A stretch of 53,105 bases of DNA from Chloroflexota bacterium (lineage in GTDB: Bacteria; Chloroflexota; Anaerolineae; Anaerolineales; Villigracilaceae), in contig QMIW01000066.1 of NCBI GenBank assembly GCA_024434165.1, positions 1 through 53,105 of the forward strand, in the 5' to 3' direction. Every line of letters starts with the position of its first letter. Position 1 is the stretch's first letter. Shown here piece by piece: positions 3,033 through 52,897 of this stretch. The notes below the pieces were generated by a model that was not told the origin of the DNA, searched no databases, and saw only the letters and a list, made by a program, of their open reading frames with translations. A program made the translations under genes and the position numbers.

Positions 3033-3166
3033 ACTCACCTTACGCGGCAAGGGCGGACCATCCATGTTTTTGCCAAATGTCTGGGGCAGGGCAACCCTTT
3101 CTTGCAGATTGGCTGTCTGTTTTGCTCAAACGGGTCGCCCCTGCGACAAAATCGCGTAAGGTGAGT
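3033..3166. mobile_element. 134-bp MITE-like element with 14-bp perfect terminal inverted repeats
   Basis: ACTCACCTTACGCG at 3033-3046 is exactly repeated in inverted orientation at 3153-3166. Between them lies an imperfect inner palindrome built on GCAGGGCAACCC and GGGTCGCCCCTGC. There is no coding capacity. Related right-hand ends occur at 41882-41902 and near 43249-43262, and TTACGCAG-ended relatives at 32221-32310 and 35871-35980. I see no clear target-site duplication. The element sits inside the ABC exporter cluster. Confidence 0.75.
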
Positions 3167-3200
3167 GAGTAACCTATAATTCTCCAATCATTCAATGCTC

Positions 3201-19571: not shown

Positions 19572-21416
19572 CTACATCATGTCGGGCGCTTGAATACCGA
19601 GCAAACGCAGCGCATTGGCAATGACCTGCTTTGCCGCCGCCACCAACCGCAGACGGGCGTTCTTCACAGTTTCATCCTCCGCCTGCAAAACGGGAACGGC
19701 ATGATAGAACGAATGGAAGGCATTCGCCAGGTCGTAGGCGTAGGTCGCCATCACCAGCGGACGATACTCTTCTGCCGCCTGCTGCACCTTCTGCGGAAAT
19801 TGCGAGATCAGGTCAATTAACTCAACCTCGTGTTTGGTCAATTCATAGTCAAAGGTCGCAGGTCGAAGGTCAGACCTTTGACCCTTCGATGAACCCAGGG
19901 CAGGCTCTTCGACTTTCGACTTTTTCAGAATCGAGTTCGCCCGCACATGCGCGTTTTGGATATACGGTCCCGTGCGCCCGTCGAAGGAGAGCGCTTCATC
20001 AATGTTGAACACAATGTCCTTGTTGTTATCCACCGAGAGCATGGAATAGACCAGCGCGCCCAAGCCGATCTGCGCCGCGATTTTCTCGCGTTCCTCGGCG
20101 GGGATGTCCACGCTCTTTTCGGCTTCCACGGAAAGCACGCGCTTCACGGCTTCATCCGCCACTTCCTTGAACAGCGCCACCCGTCCCTTGCGCGAAGACA
20201 TTGCGCCTTCGGGCAGGCTCACGAAGCCGTAGCCGAGGTGGTAACACTTTTCCGCTTGCGGAAAACCCCACAACTTCAAAATCGCAAACGCCTGCTGCAA
20301 ATGCAGGGACTGGCGCACATCCACTACATAGATCGAGCGGTCCACGTGATATTTCTCGAATTTTACCTTTGCCAGCGCCAGGTCCTTGGTCAGGTACAGG
20401 GTTGTGCCGTCCGAGCGCAGGATGACATTCGTGCGGTACTTTTCCTTGGTCAAGCCGAGTTTCTCGTCAATCTTCACGATCACCGCGCCGCCCTGCGGGC
20501 GTTCATCGTCGGCGATGCCTTTGGCGATCAACTCTTCCACAATCGCCTTCGAGGGCTCATCCACTTCGCTTTCGTAGAACCACACGTCAATTTTGACATC
20601 AAGCATCCGCAGGATCTCGCGTAATTCCTCCAAACTCCATTCGCGGGTCGTACGCCACAACTCCCGCACGTACGGATCGCCCGCATCCCACTTGCGGTAC
20701 ATCTCGCGCCGTTCGGTTTCATACGCCTCGCGCTGCGCGGTCTCTTCGGGCGTTTCGTTTTCCTTTTTTTCCAGCAGTTGATTGGCTTCGACGTATAACT
20801 TCAACAGCCATTGCCCGCGCTCGTGCACGTCCGCAGGTTCCTGACCTTTGTAAAACTTGTCGTACATCCACATCACGGTGACGACGCCCAAGCCCAGGTC
20901 GCCTGGGTACGAGGCGCGGATGGTTTTGTAGCCCGCGAACTCCACCAGTCTCGCCAGCGCTTCGCCCAAGATCGTGTTGCGCGCATGTCCAATATGGAAG
21001 GAGTGATGCGTATTCGGTTGGGCATACTCCACCATCACCGTTTCGGATTTTGGTTCGCCCCTCCCGAAATCCGCGCCAGCCGCCAGCGTTTCTTCCACTA
21101 CGCGCTGGGCATATTCGGATGTTTTGAAATAGATGTTGAGATAGCCCTTGACCGCCTCGATGTGACTGATCCCCTCCACGCTTCCCAACTGACCCTTGAC
21201 CTGCTCGGCGATTTCCTGAGCCTTTTGCGGCACTGGAAGTTTTTCCCCTTTGCCGCGCTTCACCTCGTTGGCGGCGGTCTGGAAAAACGACGTGGCAAAA
21301 CCCCACTCGCCCGAGAAGGGGATGGACTGCCATTTCAACTCCGCCAGCGCGATGTCGTTGGCTTGGCAGTATTCTTTTATCTTTTCTTCGATAAGTCGCT
21401 GTTCTTTATGAAACAT
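19572..21416 (-). CDS. argS: Arginyl-tRNA synthetase with an in-frame repeat insertion
   Basis: The 614-residue class Ia synthetase charges tRNA-Arg. It has the N-terminal additional domain, the HIGH motif in NTHHSFHIGHARN (about 137-149), the KMSKS-equivalent GAMSSRKGR (about 410) and the anticodon-binding end. Between SILKKSK and YELTKHEVELIDL lies a non-conserved stretch of about 24 residues that is encoded by repeat DNA (19848-19921); family members usually have only a short linker there, so the repeat is tolerated in frame. TATAAT lies nine bases upstream of the ATG at 21416, with no Shine-Dalgarno, so the leader is about 2-3 nt. Confidence 0.97.
   Translation of the reverse strand: MFHKEQRLIEEKIKEYCQANDIALAELKWQSIPFSGEWGFATSFFQTAANEVKRGKGEKLPVPQKAQEIAEQVKGQLGSVEGISHIEAVKGYLNIYFKTSEYAQRVVEETLAAGADFGRGEPKSETVMVEYAQPNTHHSFHIGHARNTILGEALARLVEFAGYKTIRASYPGDLGLGVVTVMWMYDKFYKGQEPADVHERGQWLLKLYVEANQLLEKKENETPEETAQREAYETERREMYRKWDAGDPYVRELWRTTREWSLEELREILRMLDVKIDVWFYESEVDEPSKAIVEELIAKGIADDERPQGGAVIVKIDEKLGLTKEKYRTNVILRSDGTTLYLTKDLALAKVKFEKYHVDRSIYVVDVRQSLHLQQAFAILKLWGFPQAEKCYHLGYGFVSLPEGAMSSRKGRVALFKEVADEAVKRVLSVEAEKSVDIPAEEREKIAAQIGLGALVYSMLSVDNNKDIVFNIDEALSFDGRTGPYIQNAHVRANSILKKSKVEEPALGSSKGQRSDLRPATFDYELTKHEVELIDLISQFPQKVQQAAEEYRPLVMATYAYDLANAFHSFYHAVPVLQAEDETVKNARLRLVAAAKQVIANALRLLGIQAPDMM
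19848..19921. repeat. Repeat inserted in the argS coding sequence
   Basis: Inverted arms GTCAAAGGTCGCAGGTCGAAGG and CTTCGACTTTCGAC flank a core CCTTCGATGAACCCAGGGCAGGCTC, itself a relative of the widespread CTTCGA...CAGGGCAGGCTC repeat. The iterated unit is GTCGAAA/GTCAAAG, as in the uvrA insertion. It stays in frame and adds about 24 residues. Confidence 0.8.
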
Positions 21417-23336: not shown

Positions 23337-23447
23337 AGTATACGTATACAAGTACACAGGTATACAGGTATACAGGTACACAAGGTGTTCCAGATCTGTC
23401 TACCTGTTTACTTGTTTACCTGTCTACCTGTCCCTACCTGTCTACCG
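23337..23447. repeat. Large imperfect inverted repeat of 8-bp units (GTATACAG type)
   Basis: Left arm: repeated GTATACAAG/GTATACAG/GTACACAG units (23337-23382). Right arm: repeated CTGTCTAC/CTGTTTAC/TTGTTTAC units (23396-23447), the rough reverse complement. It lies after uvrA and could fold into a long hairpin. Like short tandemly repeated repetitive (STRR) sequences, it varies unit by unit. Confidence 0.75.
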
Positions 23448-23464
23448 CCTTCGTATCCCCCTCT

Positions 23465-26371
23465 TTACTTCCCCACGTGTTCTTTCAAGTATCTCCCCGT
23501 GTACGAGCCTTTGACCTTCATCACCTGTTCGGGCGTGCCTTCGGCGATCAGTTCGCCGCCTCGGTCGCCGCCTTCAGGACCGAGGTCAATCAACCAGTCT
23601 GCCACCTTGATGATGTCGAGGTTGTGTTCGATGATGAGGACGGAGTTCCCCGAGTCCACCAGCCGCTGTAAAACTTCGATCAGCTTGTGCACGTCCGCCG
23701 CGTGCAGACCGACGGAGGGTTCATCCAGCACGTAAAGGGTGCGCCCGGTGGCGCGGCGCGAAAGTTCCTTCGAGAGTTTCACGCGCTGCGCTTCGCCGCC
23801 GGAGAGCGTCGTGGCAGGCTGACCAACGCGGATGTAACCAAGCCCGACCTCCTGCAAGAGTTTCAACTTGTTCAGCATCGGCGGATAATTCTTGAATTCC
23901 TCCAACGCATGGTCAACGGTCATATCCAGCACGTCGGCAATCGAATATTTGTCGCGGAACATCACCTGCAGGGTCTCGCGGTTGAAGCGCTTGCCATGAC
24001 ATACGTCGCACGGCACGTACACATCGGGCAGGAACTGCATTTCGATGCGCAGTTCGCCCTGTCCCTGGCAGGCTTCGCAGCGCCCGCCATGCACGTTGAA
24101 CGAGAACCGCCCCGGCTTGTAACCGCGCACTTTGCTTTCGGGCAGTTCGGCAAACAGTTTGCGGATCTCGTCGAACAGTCCCGTGTAGGTACCGGGATTC
24201 GAACGCGGCGTACGCCCGATGGGCGACTGGTCAATGTTGATGATCTTGTCGAGATGCTCCACGCCTTCGATATGTTCGTGCGCCCCCGCCTGCGTGCGTG
24301 CGCCCATCAGTTCCGCTGCGAGCGCGTTGTACAAAATATCGCTCATCAGCGTAGACTTGCCCGAACCGGAGACGCCCGTGATGCAGACCAGTTTCCCAAG
24401 CGGGATTTGGACGTCAATTTTCTTGAGGTTGTTCGCGGATGCGCCGACGATCCTGAGACTCTTCCCGTTGCCCTCGCGCCTCTTTTTCGGGACCGGGACC
24501 TGCCTGCGCCCCGAGAGGTAGAGTCCTGTCAGCGACTTTGGGTGCGCCAAAATCTGCTTCGGCGTGCCTTCTGCGATGACCTGGCCGCCGTGTTCGCCCG
24601 CCGCAGGACCAAGGTCAATCACCCAGTCTGATTCGCGGATGGTCTCGTCATCATGTTCCACCACCAGCACCGTGTTGCCGAGGTCACGCAAGCCTTTGAG
24701 CGTTTCCAGCAGGCGCGAGTTATCACGCGGATGCAAACCGATGGAAGGCTCATCCAACACGTAGAGAACGCCCACCAAACGCGAACCAACCTGGGTGGCA
24801 AGCCGGATGCGCTGCGCCTCCCCGCCGGAGAGCGTCACGGCGGAGCGATTCAAGGTAAGGTAATCCAAACCGACATTGACAAGAAACGTCAGCCGCTCGT
24901 GGATTTCTTTTAGCACGCGTTCGGCAATCGCCTTCTGCTTGGAGGTAAGCGGCGAATTCCTGCCCATCAGTTTCTTCACCCAATCCAGCGTTTGCAGCAC
25001 GGGCCAGGAGTTGGCTTCCACGATGTTCACGCCGTCCACGGTCACTGCCAGCGCGGCGGGATTCAGCCGCTTGCCCTGGCAGGATGGGCAGGGACGGTCG
25101 GACATGAACTCCGAAATTTTTTCGCGGATGTATTCGGAGTTGGTCTCGCGGTAACGGCGTTCGAGGTTGGTGATGACGCCCTCGAACGCGCGCGAAAACT
25201 TGAATTCATTTCCACTTGCGCTCTGGTACGTCATCTGGATCTGTTTGTCGCCGGTTCCGTACAAAATGATTCTCACCTGTTCCTTCGATAATTCGCGCAC
25301 AGGTTTATCGAGGTCAATTTTGTACGCCCGCGCCGCATTGACCAGGCTTTGCCAGTAGTACCCGCCTTCCTCTTTAGGTCCGCTCCACTCCATGCTGTCA
25401 ATCGCTCCCTCGTTCAGGGACAGGTCCGGGTCCGGGATGATGCGCTCGGGATCAATTTCCAGTTTCGAGCCGAGTCCCTGACAATCCGGGCAGGCGCCCT
25501 GCGGCGTGTTGAAGGAAAACGTGCGCGGCTCCACTTCGGGGACGGTCGAGCCGTGTTCGGGGCAGGCGAGGTGCTCGGAGAATTGAAGATCGAAAGTCGA
25601 AGGTCGAAGGTCGCTTGACTTTTGACTTTCGACCTTCGACACAGTCACATACCCTTCCCCAAACTTGAGCGCCGTTTCAACGGAGTCTGTGAGGCGGGAG
25701 CGTGCGGCTTTTCGGTCCTCCTTGTCGCCCTCGTGCGAAATGACCAGGCGGTCCACCACGGCTTCGATGGTGTGCTGTTTGTAGCGGTCGAGTTCGATCT
25801 CGTCATCGAGTGAGTGGACGGTTCCGTCCACGCGGGCGCGGGTGAAGCCCGCCTTGCGGATTTCCTCGAAGACGGCTTGATACGTGCCTTTGCGTCCGCG
25901 CACGAGCGGAGAGAGGATGAGGATGCGCGTACCTTCGGGCAGTTTTTCGATATGATCCACGATCTCCTGCGCCGACTGCCGCGCCACTTCGCGTCCGCAC
26001 ACGGGACAGTGAGGAATGCCCGCGCGCGCAAACAGCAAACGCATGTAGTCGTAGATTTCGGTCACGGTGCCGACGGTGGAGCGCGGATTGTGGCTGGTGG
26101 ATTTCTGGTCAATCGAAACGGCGGGGGAAAGTCCCTCGATGTAATCCACATCGGGCTTGTCCATCTGCCCGATGAACTGACGCGCATACGCCGAGAGCGA
26201 CTCGACATACCGCCTCTGACCTTCGGCGAAGATGGTGTCGAACGCCAGCGACGACTTGCCCGACCCCGACAAGCCGGTGATGACCACAAACTTATCGCGC
26301 GGAATTTCCACGGTGATGTTTTTCAAATTGTGGACGCGCGCGCCCACAACGCGGATTTGATTGGATGACAT
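23465..26371 (-). CDS. uvrA: Excinuclease ABC subunit A with an in-frame repeat insertion
   Basis: The 968-residue ABC-class ATPase finds DNA damage for nucleotide excision repair. It has two nucleotide-binding domains: Walker [13 protein letters not shown] (about 32-43) and [11 protein letters not shown] (about 660), two LSGGEAQR signatures and Zn-binding pairs CPVCG, CPDC, CPSC, CEAC and CDVC. Between YVTV and FSEHLACP a stretch of about 17 residues ([17 protein letters not shown]) is encoded by repeat DNA at 25589-25640, where family members have a short variable linker. TATAAT lies 30 bases upstream of the start codon. It is divergent from the LuxR gene. Confidence 0.97.
25589..25640. repeat. 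Repeat inserted in the uvrA coding sequence
   Basis: A 52-bp palindrome of GTCGAAA-type heptamers: GATCGAAAGTCGAAGGTCGAAGGTC, a short centre, then GACTTTTGACTTTCGACCTTCGAC. TTCGACCTTCGA and its complement form a perfect 12-bp core. It is in frame and encodes a peptide nearly the same as the argS insertion (SKVE and SDLRPSTFD versus SDLRPATFD). Confidence 0.82.
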
Positions 26372-32210: not shown

Positions 32211-32220
32211 GAATTTTATT

Positions 32221-32310
32221 CACTCACCTTACGCAGCACCGCGAGATTCATCTCGCCTTTGCAGAGCAATATGAATGTTGCAGTACGAGCAAACTGCGTA
32301 CCATGAGTTA
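32221..32310. repeat. Intergenic element, TTACGCAG type, copy A
   Basis: CACTCACCTTACGCAG ... CTGCGTACCATGAGTTA around a perfect GCGAGAT/ATCTCGC hairpin. Copy B (35871-35980) is closely similar. Both share the CTCACCTTACGC end with the 134-bp element at 3033-3166. It separates DegV from the small membrane-protein gene. Confidence 0.72.
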
Positions 32311-35830: not shown

Positions 35831-35868
35831 AAAAACATCCCGCAAGGCAAACCCTGCGGGATGTTTTT
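35831..35868. terminator. Bidirectional intrinsic terminator
   Basis: Perfect 14-bp stem AAAAACATCCCGCA / TGCGGGATGTTTTT with a 10-base loop. It serves both the S41 protease gene (plus) and the GT2 gene (minus). Confidence 0.9.
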
Positions 35869-35870
35869 AA

Positions 35871-35980
35871 TCACTCGCCTTACGCAGTACCGCGAGATTC
35901 ATCTCGCCTTTGCGGCGCAGTATGAATCCTCTGCGAGGGCAAGTTATTGCGGTACGAGTAAACTGCGTAACATCAGTTAA
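35871..35980. repeat. Intergenic element, TTACGCAG type, copy B
   Basis: TCACTCGCCTTACGCAGTACCGC ... GCGGTACGAGTAAACTGCGTAA with a GCGAGAT/ATCTCGC hairpin inside. The right end includes the stop codon of the GT2 gene (35977-35979). Closely similar to copy A. Confidence 0.72.
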
Positions 35981-41769: not shown

Positions 41770-42088
41770 CCCTTTTGATTTGTGGCTCTACCGTTTTTAA
41801 CGCGAATGCCATTATTAGGGCGACTCCTTCTTGCAGATTGACTGCCTGTTCCGCCCAAACGGGTTGCCCCTGCCATGAATTCGCGTAAGGCGAGTGATTA
41901 ACACGAAGGACACGACGATCACGAAGGAGAAATCCCGAAAAGATCAGCCCTCTTACCCCTTTGTGTACTTGGCGCCCTTTGCGGTGAGACGTTTTCCCGC
42001 TCGTTACGGGAGAGCCTGATTTTTGTACGAAACGGGAATTGGTGATACCATCCCCGCTCCCGACCCTGTTGTGTGAGGAGAAACCTCG
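41770..42088. other. Gene-free stretch with repeats
   Basis: A 319-bp gap. It contains a partial relative of the 3033-3166 element (TTGCAGATTGACTGCCTGTT, AAACGGGTTGCCCCTGCC, CGCGTAAGGCGAGTGATTAAC at about 41830-41902) and a run of ACACGAAGGACACGACGATCACGAAG-like units with inverted TTTGTGTACTTGGCGCC units (41903-41985). A leader with GAGGAGAAACCTCG precedes the next gene. Confidence 0.55.
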
Positions 42089-48626: not shown

Positions 48627-48662
48627 AAAGGCATCCAAAGACCCAAATCTCTGGATGCCTTT
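48627..48662. terminator. Bidirectional terminator between the AlgJ-like gene and glnA
   Basis: Stem AAAGGCATCC (48627-48636) / GGATGCCTTT (48653-48662), with a T-run on the minus strand. It can end glnA transcripts and, more weakly, the plus-strand operon. Confidence 0.78.
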
Positions 48663-48742
48663 CCTATTCACTACTTACCATTTACCATTCACTACTTACC
48701 ATTTACTATTCACTATTCACTATTCACTATTTACTATTCACT
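48661..48742. repeat. Short iterated repeat, TTTACCA/TTCACTA type
   Basis: About ten tandem, slightly varied units of seven to eight bases (CATTCACTACTTAC, CATTTACCATTCAC, TATTCACTATTCAC) just after the glnA stop codon. Confidence 0.75.
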
Positions 48743-52679: not shown

Positions 52680-52891
52680 AAAAAAAACGGAACGCCCGCC
52701 GGGCGTTCCGTTATAATGCGTACCCCGCACGTGCCGTGTACTGCTAGGTTTTGAACCTGCTTTCGCAGGTGGGTCCTGACCGGGAAACGCCGCCTTGGCT
52801 CAGGCCTATCGCGTTATTTCCTTTGAGATAAGGACCCTTAAAAGGGGTGTTGGCTCAAAACGTAGGTGCAATATCACGAACACCGCAGGGC
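52680..52891 (-). ncRNA. Structured RNA, probably a 6S-type RNA
   Basis: A minus-strand RNA of about 210 nt is set by an extended -10 box (TGGTATAAG, 52898-52903) and a strong terminator (52681-52710). The 5' end GCCCUGC pairs with GCGGGGU near the 3' end through five Watson-Crick and two G-U pairs. Inside are GGUGUU/AACACC, AGGACCC/GGGUCCU and a CCUGC-GAAA-GCAGG hairpin with a GNRA tetraloop shortly before the closing stem. A closing stem, a central bulge with a 3' hairpin and the phrase GUGUUCGUGAUAUUGCACC recall 6S RNA, which binds housekeeping RNA polymerase. Identity rests on pattern only. Confidence 0.6.
52681..52710 (-). terminator. Terminator of the 6S-like RNA
   Basis: Ten-bp stem CGGAACGCCC / GGGCGTTCCG with a 3-base loop, followed on the minus strand by seven to eight T. 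Confidence 0.88.
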
Positions 52892-52897
52892 GCAGTC

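What the first reader, a model, noticed from the sequence alone, without database searches (positions are those of the whole stretch)
19848..19921. The same repeat type in frame inside argS, with a second repeat nested in it
argS carries about 24 extra residues encoded by GTCGAAA-like arms around a CTTCGATGAACCCAGGGCAGGCTC core that resembles another widespread repeat. The peptide shares SKVE and SDLRPATFD with the uvrA insertion, so two unrelated essential proteins have acquired nearly the same peptide. The nesting suggests one repeat invaded another, and the reading frame was kept.
Basis: partly seen in the sequence, partly recalled or inferred. Interest (0 to 1): 0.82.

Follow-up and report, generated by a model that had tools for sequence, protein, structure and literature searches.

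The report
Heptamer DNA repeats inside essential enzymes
In an uncultured Anaerolineales bacterium, a loop of the essential arginyl-tRNA synthetase is encoded by a folded-back array of 7-base DNA repeats with a second repeat lodged inside it, and many related species carry differing 7-base arrays at the same place; the peptide looks tolerated rather than selected, and how the DNA keeps renewing itself is an open question.

Summary
argS (window 19572-21416, minus) encodes residues 500-523 from a two-armed GTCRAAR heptamer array with a 24-bp second repeat inside. Relatives with the array but without that unit show that the nesting came later. Two corrections. The array replaced an older linker (11 codons in the shortest relatives, 25 here), so the net gain is about 14 residues, not 24. 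The peptide shared with uvrA is no sign of selection: 7 is coprime with 3, so a heptamer array gives one heptapeptide cycle in all three frames. The wider finding is larger. Of 88 distinct ArgS genes, 50 have a period-7 linker at the 1% level, with differing but related units, even between near sisters. uvrA and a biotin carboxylase gene behave alike. In 453 kb of this genome, three-unit arrays number 59 for period 7 and 10 for period 8 (shuffles 0.3 each), and 1 for periods 9-13. Best reading: heptanucleotide repeats of the kind known in cyanobacteria, here often inside genes, tolerated in disordered loops and turned over quickly. How arrays arise is inferred. New variant of a known kind.

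The parts
19572..21416 (-). argS, arginyl-tRNA synthetase, 614 aa, single match in this genome
19848..19919 (-). repeat-encoded residues 500-523 (SKVEEPALGSSKGQRSDLRPATFD) in the linker before the anticodon-binding helices
19848..19871 (.). one arm of the outer heptamer array: GTCAAAG GTCGCAG GTCGAAG GTC
19873..19882 (.). start of the other arm (GACCTTTGAC) before the nested repeat
19884..19907 (.). nested 24-bp repeat (CTTCGATGAACCCAGGGCAGGCTC), read as part of EPALGSSKG on the minus strand; among the ArgS loci compared seen at this position only here and in L016
19908..19920 (.). rest of the second arm (TTCGACTTTCGAC)
23465..26371 (-). uvrA, 968 aa
25585..25640 (.). two-armed GTCRAAR array in frame in uvrA ([17 protein letters not shown])
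23344..23446 (.). intergenic hairpin of octamer units GTAxACAR / YTGTxTAC downstream of uvrA (similar array, other unit)
48660..48742 (.). intergenic one-armed heptamer array, about 12 units of consensus TTTACTA

Best explanation
Short arrays of 7-bp (less often 8-bp) DNA units, often two arms of the same unit facing each other, are dispersed through this Anaerolineales genome, between genes and inside them. At the argS linker an array replaced the loop-coding DNA; the result survived because its net length kept the frame, the strand read holds no stop, and the encoded stretch is a disordered linker between the catalytic part and the anticodon-binding domain. Afterwards the unit sequence drifted or was replaced quickly, so that related species now have differing units at the same site. 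In this species and separately in another, a dispersed 24-bp repeat then entered the array, bounded by GTCGAAG-like heptamers, and again kept the frame. Shown: sequence, frame, distribution, sites without the inner unit, unit differences, predicted disorder. Inferred: that the residues are translated and neutral, and that arrays spread and turn over by slippage plus copying or template switching between similar units.
For: Repeat family far above chance (149 matches against 0). Three-unit arrays in 453 kb: period 7, 59; period 8, 10; codon-block shuffles 0.3 each; periods 9-13 together 1. ArgS linker: 50 of 88 distinct genes period-7 at the 1% level of same-gene windows; best period is 7 in 55 of 88 against 148 of 1760 control windows. 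The EPAL..SKG unit is at that position only in the window and L016; L033 and L076 have a CTTCGACAGGCTCAG unit at another position, and L034, close to L076, lacks it. 26 distinct ArgS-site heptamers: 24 join one single-substitution network with 35 edges, against means of 4.2 and 7.4 for order-shuffled units. Array presence follows the ArgS tree (15 changes against 26.5 shuffled, 0 of 500; automatic against 27.6, 1 of 300) while unit class among carriers follows it only weakly (25 against 27.8, 25 of 500; hand labels) or hardly (exact units 38 against 40.0, 27 of 300). Same pattern in UvrA (of 19 same-genus loci covering the site, 5 have heptamer arrays and 11 are short) and in a biotin carboxylase gene (5 of 30 loci heptamer-coded, 2 of 30 with an inner-type repeat). 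AlphaFold model: residues 500-527 without secondary structure, pLDDT below 50 at 505-515. Frame-independence of the peptide.
Against: Adjacent units within GTCRAAR arrays are no more alike than random (0.22 against 0.26 in G000; 0.27 against 0.28 elsewhere), where recent single-unit slippage would make neighbours alike. Two-armed arrays always had the GTCRAAR arm first (15 of 15 in G000, 21 of 21 in other genomes), an order slippage alone does not explain. With the rows without an array included, the hand labels do follow the tree (36 changes against 46.8, 0 of 500), which I put down to presence. Automatic unit classes at Hamming 1 merge 45 of 52 units and give no test. Translation and neutrality were not tested.
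Confidence: 0.78

Rival explanations
1. The arrays are a mobile hairpin family (REP- or MITE-like) moved by a transposase such as a RAYT, and the argS copy is a transposed element.
For: GTCRAAR copies are dispersed on both strands; all 36 distinct two-armed sites in hand have one polarity; 35 of 37 genomes of the genus have the family against 1 of 24 from other families of the order; three Y1_Tnp genes exist in the genome.
Against: No fixed unit number or spacer (spacers 1-36 bp); none of the three Y1_Tnp loci (1.5 kb on each side) holds a three-unit heptamer or octamer array or a GTCRAAR dimer, and the one searched for repeats has a different palindrome of its own; 52 different units among 69 arrays do not look like copies of one element.
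Confidence: 0.18
2. The array is kept for a DNA or RNA role (mRNA hairpin, protein-binding site, terminator when intergenic), and the peptide is a by-product.
For: RNA from the argS and uvrA copies folds better than shuffles (z -2.6 and -3.1); uniform polarity of arms.
Against: The L010 argS array folds only weakly better (z -1.7, 10 of 200 shuffles as good); arms do not match each other at the variable positions better than random partners (47 of 118 agree, 0.40 against 0.50, 981 of 1000 random pairings as good); several species have one-armed arrays or none at the argS site; the 48660-48742 array does not fold.
Confidence: 0.12
3. The linker peptide has been selected for a function in ArgS.
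For: Array presence is inherited more faithfully than random (15 changes against 26.5).
Against: The peptide differs widely between relatives, is absent in many, and is predicted disordered; similar peptides occur in unrelated proteins.
Confidence: 0.04
4. The arrays are made by a telomerase-like reverse transcriptase that copies a short RNA template into tandem repeats.
For: A bacterial reverse transcriptase, DRT10, makes tandem-repeat DNA from a short RNA template (PMC12632851, abstract and passages seen); here the period is fixed while the unit varies.
Against: Only one RVT_1 match in this genome; its stretch reads to me like a group II intron type (recalled, no family search succeeded). 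One DRT10 system gave 9-nt periodicity, others other lengths. No template RNA was sought.
Confidence: 0.03
5. Assembly or binning artefact.
For: Nearly all source records with titles are metagenome-assembled or uncultured genomes, and repeats can mislead assembly.
Against: 50 of 88 distinct ArgS genes from many assemblies show period-7 linkers in an intact frame.
Confidence: 0.01

Closest known systems
Heptanucleotide repeats of cyanobacteria and others (Xanthomonas and Nostoc G-rich heptamers and cited Calothrix repeats, PMC4692102; TAACTGA repeats of Beggiatoaceae, PMC4679880)
   Same: 7-bp tandem units, dispersed, genome-specific units, degenerate positions, enriched between genes; some inside ORFs
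   Different: In what I read (passages of the first, abstract and sections 10 and 15 of the second) arrays are mostly intergenic, and intragenic ones lie mainly in small hypothetical proteins or near protein ends, with a beta-prime-like ORF as exception; here many lie inside conserved enzymes at recurrent internal loops
Nostoc trnL intron P6b repeats, Class I and Class II (PMC4476775, abstract and passages seen)
   Same: One site, differing heptamer classes in related strains, repeated shifts that do not follow the phylogeny precisely
   Different: That site is an intron stem-loop in RNA with pairing constraint; here a protein-coding linker without detected pairing constraint
Rickettsia palindromic elements (reviewed in PMC2229807, passages seen)
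   Same: Palindromic repeats in frame inside conserved protein genes; neutral or slightly detrimental effect described for guanylate kinase
   Different: RPEs are 105-146 bp elements of named sequence families; here arrays of 7-bp units, variable in unit and length
GTAG- and CGTC-tagged REPs (PMC3733652, passages seen)
   Same: Short palindromes, some inside ORFs including tRNA synthetase and photolyase genes; GTAG type reported in Chloroflexi
   Different: Tetranucleotide tag and single palindrome of 20-40 bp; not tandem heptamers

Membership tests
Heptanucleotide tandem repeats (STRR-like; the name is recalled) | Tandem units of 7 bp above chance | tested here: met
   59 three-unit period-7 arrays in 453 kb against 0.3 in shuffles
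Heptanucleotide tandem repeats (STRR-like; the name is recalled) | Several unit families dispersed in one genome | tested here: met
   52 different units in 69 arrays of period 7 or 8
Heptanucleotide tandem repeats (STRR-like; the name is recalled) | Mainly intergenic | tested here: inconclusive
   30 of 69 intergenic, 9 straddling a gene end, 30 in genes (26 more than 10 aa from both ends), by own gene calls with 89% coding DNA: enriched between genes, yet many inside
Rickettsia palindromic elements | In-frame insertion in conserved protein genes | tested here: met
   ArgS, UvrA and biotin carboxylase by comparison with relatives; MoeA, QueG, homoserine dehydrogenase and photolyase by Pfam with an array inside the ORF, not compared with relatives
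Rickettsia palindromic elements | 105-146 bp element of one sequence family | tested here: not met
   Arrays of variable length built of 7-bp units
REP/RAYT system | Palindrome with GTAG or CGTC tag | tested here: not met
   GTAG or CGTC on either strand within 10 nt outside the arms in 2 of 36 two-armed sites
REP/RAYT system | Copies beside a RAYT (Y1 transposase) gene | tested here: not met
   0 of 3 Y1_Tnp loci hold a heptamer or octamer array within 1.5 kb
Miniature transposable elements (MITE) | Terminal inverted repeats and target-site duplication | tested here: inconclusive
   The nested unit is bounded by GTCGAAG-like heptamers on both sides, which may be a duplication or homology; outer arrays replaced host codons and show no clear duplication by eye

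The most novel reading that the evidence does not exclude
These bacteria have an active, unidentified process that writes 7-8-bp tandem arrays of almost any unit into their genomes, and protein loops of essential enzymes act as recurrent landing places whose sequence is rewritten on a species time scale: a DNA-driven engine of loop evolution that works because a heptamer array is read alike in all three frames.
Probability: 0.15. Interest if true: 0.85.

Novelty: new variant of a known kind. Interest (0 to 1): 0.6.

Why it matters
It extends heptanucleotide repeats from mostly intergenic DNA of a few phyla to in-frame loops of conserved, essential enzymes in Chloroflexota, with dozens of natural alleles at one site. 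That makes two open questions directly testable: what sets a 7-bp period whatever the unit, and how far repeat DNA, rather than selection on protein, writes the sequence of protein loops. It also warns that shared peptides in unrelated proteins can be mere frame arithmetic of a repeat.

Tried and rejected
Discrete unit classes by automatic clustering: at Hamming distance 1 nearly all units merge (45 of 52), so the automatic labels gave no test; hand labels among carriers and exact-unit labels are both near random on the tree (25 of 500 and 27 of 300 shuffles reach the observed count).

Pairing constraint between arms: not supported, arms agree less than random partners. Slippage signature (adjacent units alike): not found. 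Stop-free units enriched inside genes: no clear difference (both strands open in 12 of 30 in-gene and 12 of 39 other arrays). Shared GT in units: weak at the ArgS site (23 of 26 against 18.3, 14 of 500), absent in the genome sample (29 of 43 against 28.7). Transition bias between neighbouring units: 124 of 197 differences in period-7/8 arrays against 51 of 129 in period-6/9/12 arrays, noted but not used. Y1 transposase link: none of 3 loci. Telomerase-like reverse transcriptase: one RVT_1 match only. Nested repeat entering only by homology to CTTCGAC: weakened, since one of the six genome copies (L278) lies, by eye, among AATTACC-like heptamers instead. Dose relation between an array in ArgS and arrays in its flanks: none (13 in 260 kb against 8 in 149 kb). 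Period-7 density in G000 (59 in 453 kb) is higher than in five same-genus samples (0, 1, 2, 1, 2 in 80 kb each) but not than in a 90-kb set of other-family loci (9), so I do not claim that arrays as such are restricted to the genus. In one search the 'other genomes' set still held loci of the window's own genome; one search is the clean recount and replaces its counts.

Full report
What is there. The window lies in a 4.4-Mb draft genome of 173 contigs (G000) whose nearest named ArgS relatives are titled Anaerolineales or Chloroflexi bacteria, one Villigracilaceae. argS is on the minus strand at 19572-21416 (614 aa), with Pfam tRNA-synt_1d and DALR_1 domains, and is the only match in the genome. 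Residues 500-523, SKVEEPALGSSKGQRSDLRPATFD, are encoded by 19919-19848. On the plus strand the DNA is GTCAAAG GTCGCAG GTCGAAG GTC, then A, then GACCTTTGAC, a 24-bp unit CTTCGATGAACCCAGGGCAGGCTC, and TTCGACTTTCGAC: two arms of a GTCRAAR heptamer with another repeat inside one arm.

Chance. GTCRAARGTCRAARGTC with at most one mismatch matches 78 times forward and 71 times reverse in the genome, against none for the reversed control pattern (the first 100 places are listed). Without mismatch it is present in 35 of 37 genomes of the genus and in 1 of 24 genomes of other families in the order, and that one (G054) has 14 matches to the reversed control. Of 301 genomes drawn across the phylum 20 have it: 11 of 18 of the own family, 6 of one genus of a distant family, and 3 others.

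The ArgS site in relatives. 111 of the 118 loci then in hand gave an ArgS, 88 of them distinct over the compared core. The site is a linker between the conserved NAHVRANSILKK and the YELTKHEVELI block. The shortest relatives have 11 codons (for example KAGKVTDATFD, L013); the window has 25. Of the 33 tree rows that I labelled as without a recognised array, 18 have 11 to 13 codons and the rest 14 to 27. The array therefore replaced about 10 residues and the net gain is about 14. In 50 of 88 genes the linker DNA is period-7 at a level reached by at most 1% of same-length windows of the same gene; 7 is the best period in 55 of 88 and 8 in 10 of 88, against 148 and 119 of 1760 control windows. The unit varies: GTCRAAR, GTTACGA, GTTYCAR, GTGGAAA, RACGTTY, CCTKCAA and an octamer GTAxACA (my labels). 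L024 and L053 are 91% identical in the argS DNA upstream of the linker and 89% downstream, but 58% in the linker.

Tree. On an ArgS tree without the linker (86 of the 88), presence of an array needs 15 changes against 26.5 for shuffled labels (0 of 500 reach it), so it is inherited; with automatic calls it is 19 against 27.6 (1 of 300). Among 53 carriers, unit class needs 25 changes against 27.8 (25 of 500 reach it), so class is close to random. With the 33 other rows as one more class the count is 36 against 46.8 (0 of 500), which mostly repeats the presence signal. These classes were assigned by hand. Exact automatic units (50 carriers, 29 units) give 38 against 40.0 (27 of 300). Automatic clusters at one mismatch merge 45 of 52 units and give no test. 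That merging is itself informative: 26 distinct heptamers at the site form a network with 24 in one component and 35 single-substitution links, against means of 4.2 and 7.4 for order-shuffled units. The units are thus related, by drift or by a shared pool; mean mismatch is 1.75 for the closest pairs (8 pairs) and 2.0-2.3 beyond, against 3.2 for random heptamers. I cannot tell stepwise drift with homogenisation from replacement.

The nested repeat. Among these ArgS genes only the window and L016 have the EPAL..SKG unit at this position, and the two are not sisters on the tree. In both it follows a GTCGAAG-like heptamer and ends in one. L033 and L076 have a related CTTCGACAGGCTCAG unit in the other arm; L034, close to L076, has the array without it. 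L056 has GTCGAAGGGTC, which would fit a deletion between two flanking heptamers; this is a guess. In the genome the consensus unit has 6 places with at most 3 mismatches, the diverged argS copy not among them. Two of the 6 lie in or beside GTCRAAR arrays, and a third, by eye, among AATTACC-like heptamers. Meeting of the two repeat kinds is thus recurrent.

Two proteins with the same peptide. A heptamer array runs through all three frames within three units, so each frame gives the same seven-residue cycle: GTCGAAA gives VESRKSK, and GACCTTC gives DLRPSTF. SKVE and DLRPATFD in both ArgS and UvrA follow from the shared DNA unit and need no selection.

Other genes. UvrA: 30 loci were fetched. Of the 19 from the genus that cover the site, 5 have heptamer arrays, 2 have a TPPTQPSPKLGEG peptide coded by a CCCTCCCCCAAATTGGG-type palindrome, 1 has another insert and 11 the short NLVDKKED-like form. 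A biotin carboxylase gene, one of two matches in the genome, has [11 protein letters not shown] at a turn where most relatives are shorter; 5 of 30 loci are heptamer-coded by eye and 2 of 30 carry an inner-type repeat, one of them with an ATCCTTC array as well. Ten proteins, nine of them chosen for in-gene arrays, were scanned with Pfam: photolyase, QueG, homoserine dehydrogenase, MoeA and a double ABC transporter ORF are among them. These were not compared with relatives.

Genome scale. In 453 kb (20 stretches and the window), arrays of three units number 59 for period 7 and 10 for period 8 (0.3 each in codon-block shuffles), 1 for period 9 and none for 10-13; periods 5 and 6 give 79 and 55 against 70.7 and 37.0; the 69 arrays of period 7 or 8 have 52 different units. 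With my own unvalidated gene calls, 30 of 69 are intergenic, 9 straddle a gene end and 30 are inside genes, where 89% of the DNA is called coding. Other samples of the genus have fewer (0-2 in 80 kb each), while 90 kb of other-family loci have 9.

Architecture. All distinct sites in hand with both GTCRAAR arms have the GTCRAAR arm first: 15 of 15 in G000 and 21 of 21 in other genomes; spacers are 1-36 bp (one search counted 28 in the second set because own-genome loci were still in it). Arms do not match each other better than random partners, so a conserved pairing is not supported although the argS and uvrA copies fold better than shuffles (z -2.6 and -3.1; the L010 copy -1.7). Neighbouring units are not more alike than random (0.22 against 0.26 and 0.27 against 0.28). 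None of the three Y1 transposase loci has an array nearby.

Structure. The AlphaFold model (37 sequences, mean pLDDT 86) has residues 500-527 without secondary structure between helices 483-499 and 528-538, with pLDDT below 50 at 505-515. Against E. coli ArgS the sequence alignment opens gaps at the same place, and the model matches known ArgRS structures. This fits a tolerant linker; solvent exposure was not computed.

Literature. From passages: heptameric repeats were noted as over-represented in bacteria, with polymerase contact length and slippage as a suggested cause, and described in Xanthomonas, Nostoc and Calothrix (PMC4692102). TAACTGA repeats occur in Beggiatoaceae, Cyanobacteria and Bacteroidetes, with intragenic copies mostly near protein ends or in hypothetical proteins (PMC4679880, abstract and sections 10 and 15). 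Nostoc trnL introns show repeated shifts between heptamer classes at one site (PMC4476775, abstract and passages). In-frame palindromes are known from Rickettsia (PMC2229807, passages) and REPs in tRNA synthetase genes (PMC3733652, passages). Passages of a survey of simple repeats (PMC4060949) said nothing on heptamers in Chloroflexi. I saw no description of heptamer arrays in Anaerolineales in the listings of searches of this open-licence library; that is not proof of absence.

Verdict. The shared peptide is frame arithmetic. The surprising part is the recurrent, fast-changing heptamer coding of loops in conserved enzymes. The generating mechanism remains inferred.

Noticed in passing
window 52718-52894 (-): 6S RNA gene (RF00013, 77 bits).
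   Followed up: no
window 23340-23450: Octamer hairpin GTAxACAR / YTGTxTAC with the x position mostly unpaired in the predicted fold; -40 kcal/mol, z -4.7.
   Followed up: partly
window 48660-48742: One-armed heptamer array of about 12 units, with a few positions varying mainly between C and T.
   Followed up: no
window 3088-3173 and 41817-41902; 32214-32276 and 35865-35927: Dispersed repeats of 86 nt (83%) and 63 nt (90%).
   Followed up: no
L168:14944-18552: One called ORF with two ABC transporter halves holds five strict heptamer arrays of differing units.
   Followed up: partly
L214 and L216 (uvrA), L235 (uvrA): Other repeat-like inserts (TPPTQPSPKLGEG, TTPHPSPSGRGVGGEG) at the same UvrA loop as the heptamer array.
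   Followed up: partly
L243: Y1_Tnp gene with its own inverted repeat (CCACCTTCGTGG core) nearby, unlike the heptamer arrays.
   Followed up: no
L105 linker of argS: A much longer insert (192-nt linker) combining heptamer-like ends, a GC-rich palindrome-like stretch and the inner-type repeat, by eye.
   Followed up: no
G030:C7 and G030:C97: Two ArgS copies in one relative's assembly, which has 6% contamination.
   Followed up: no
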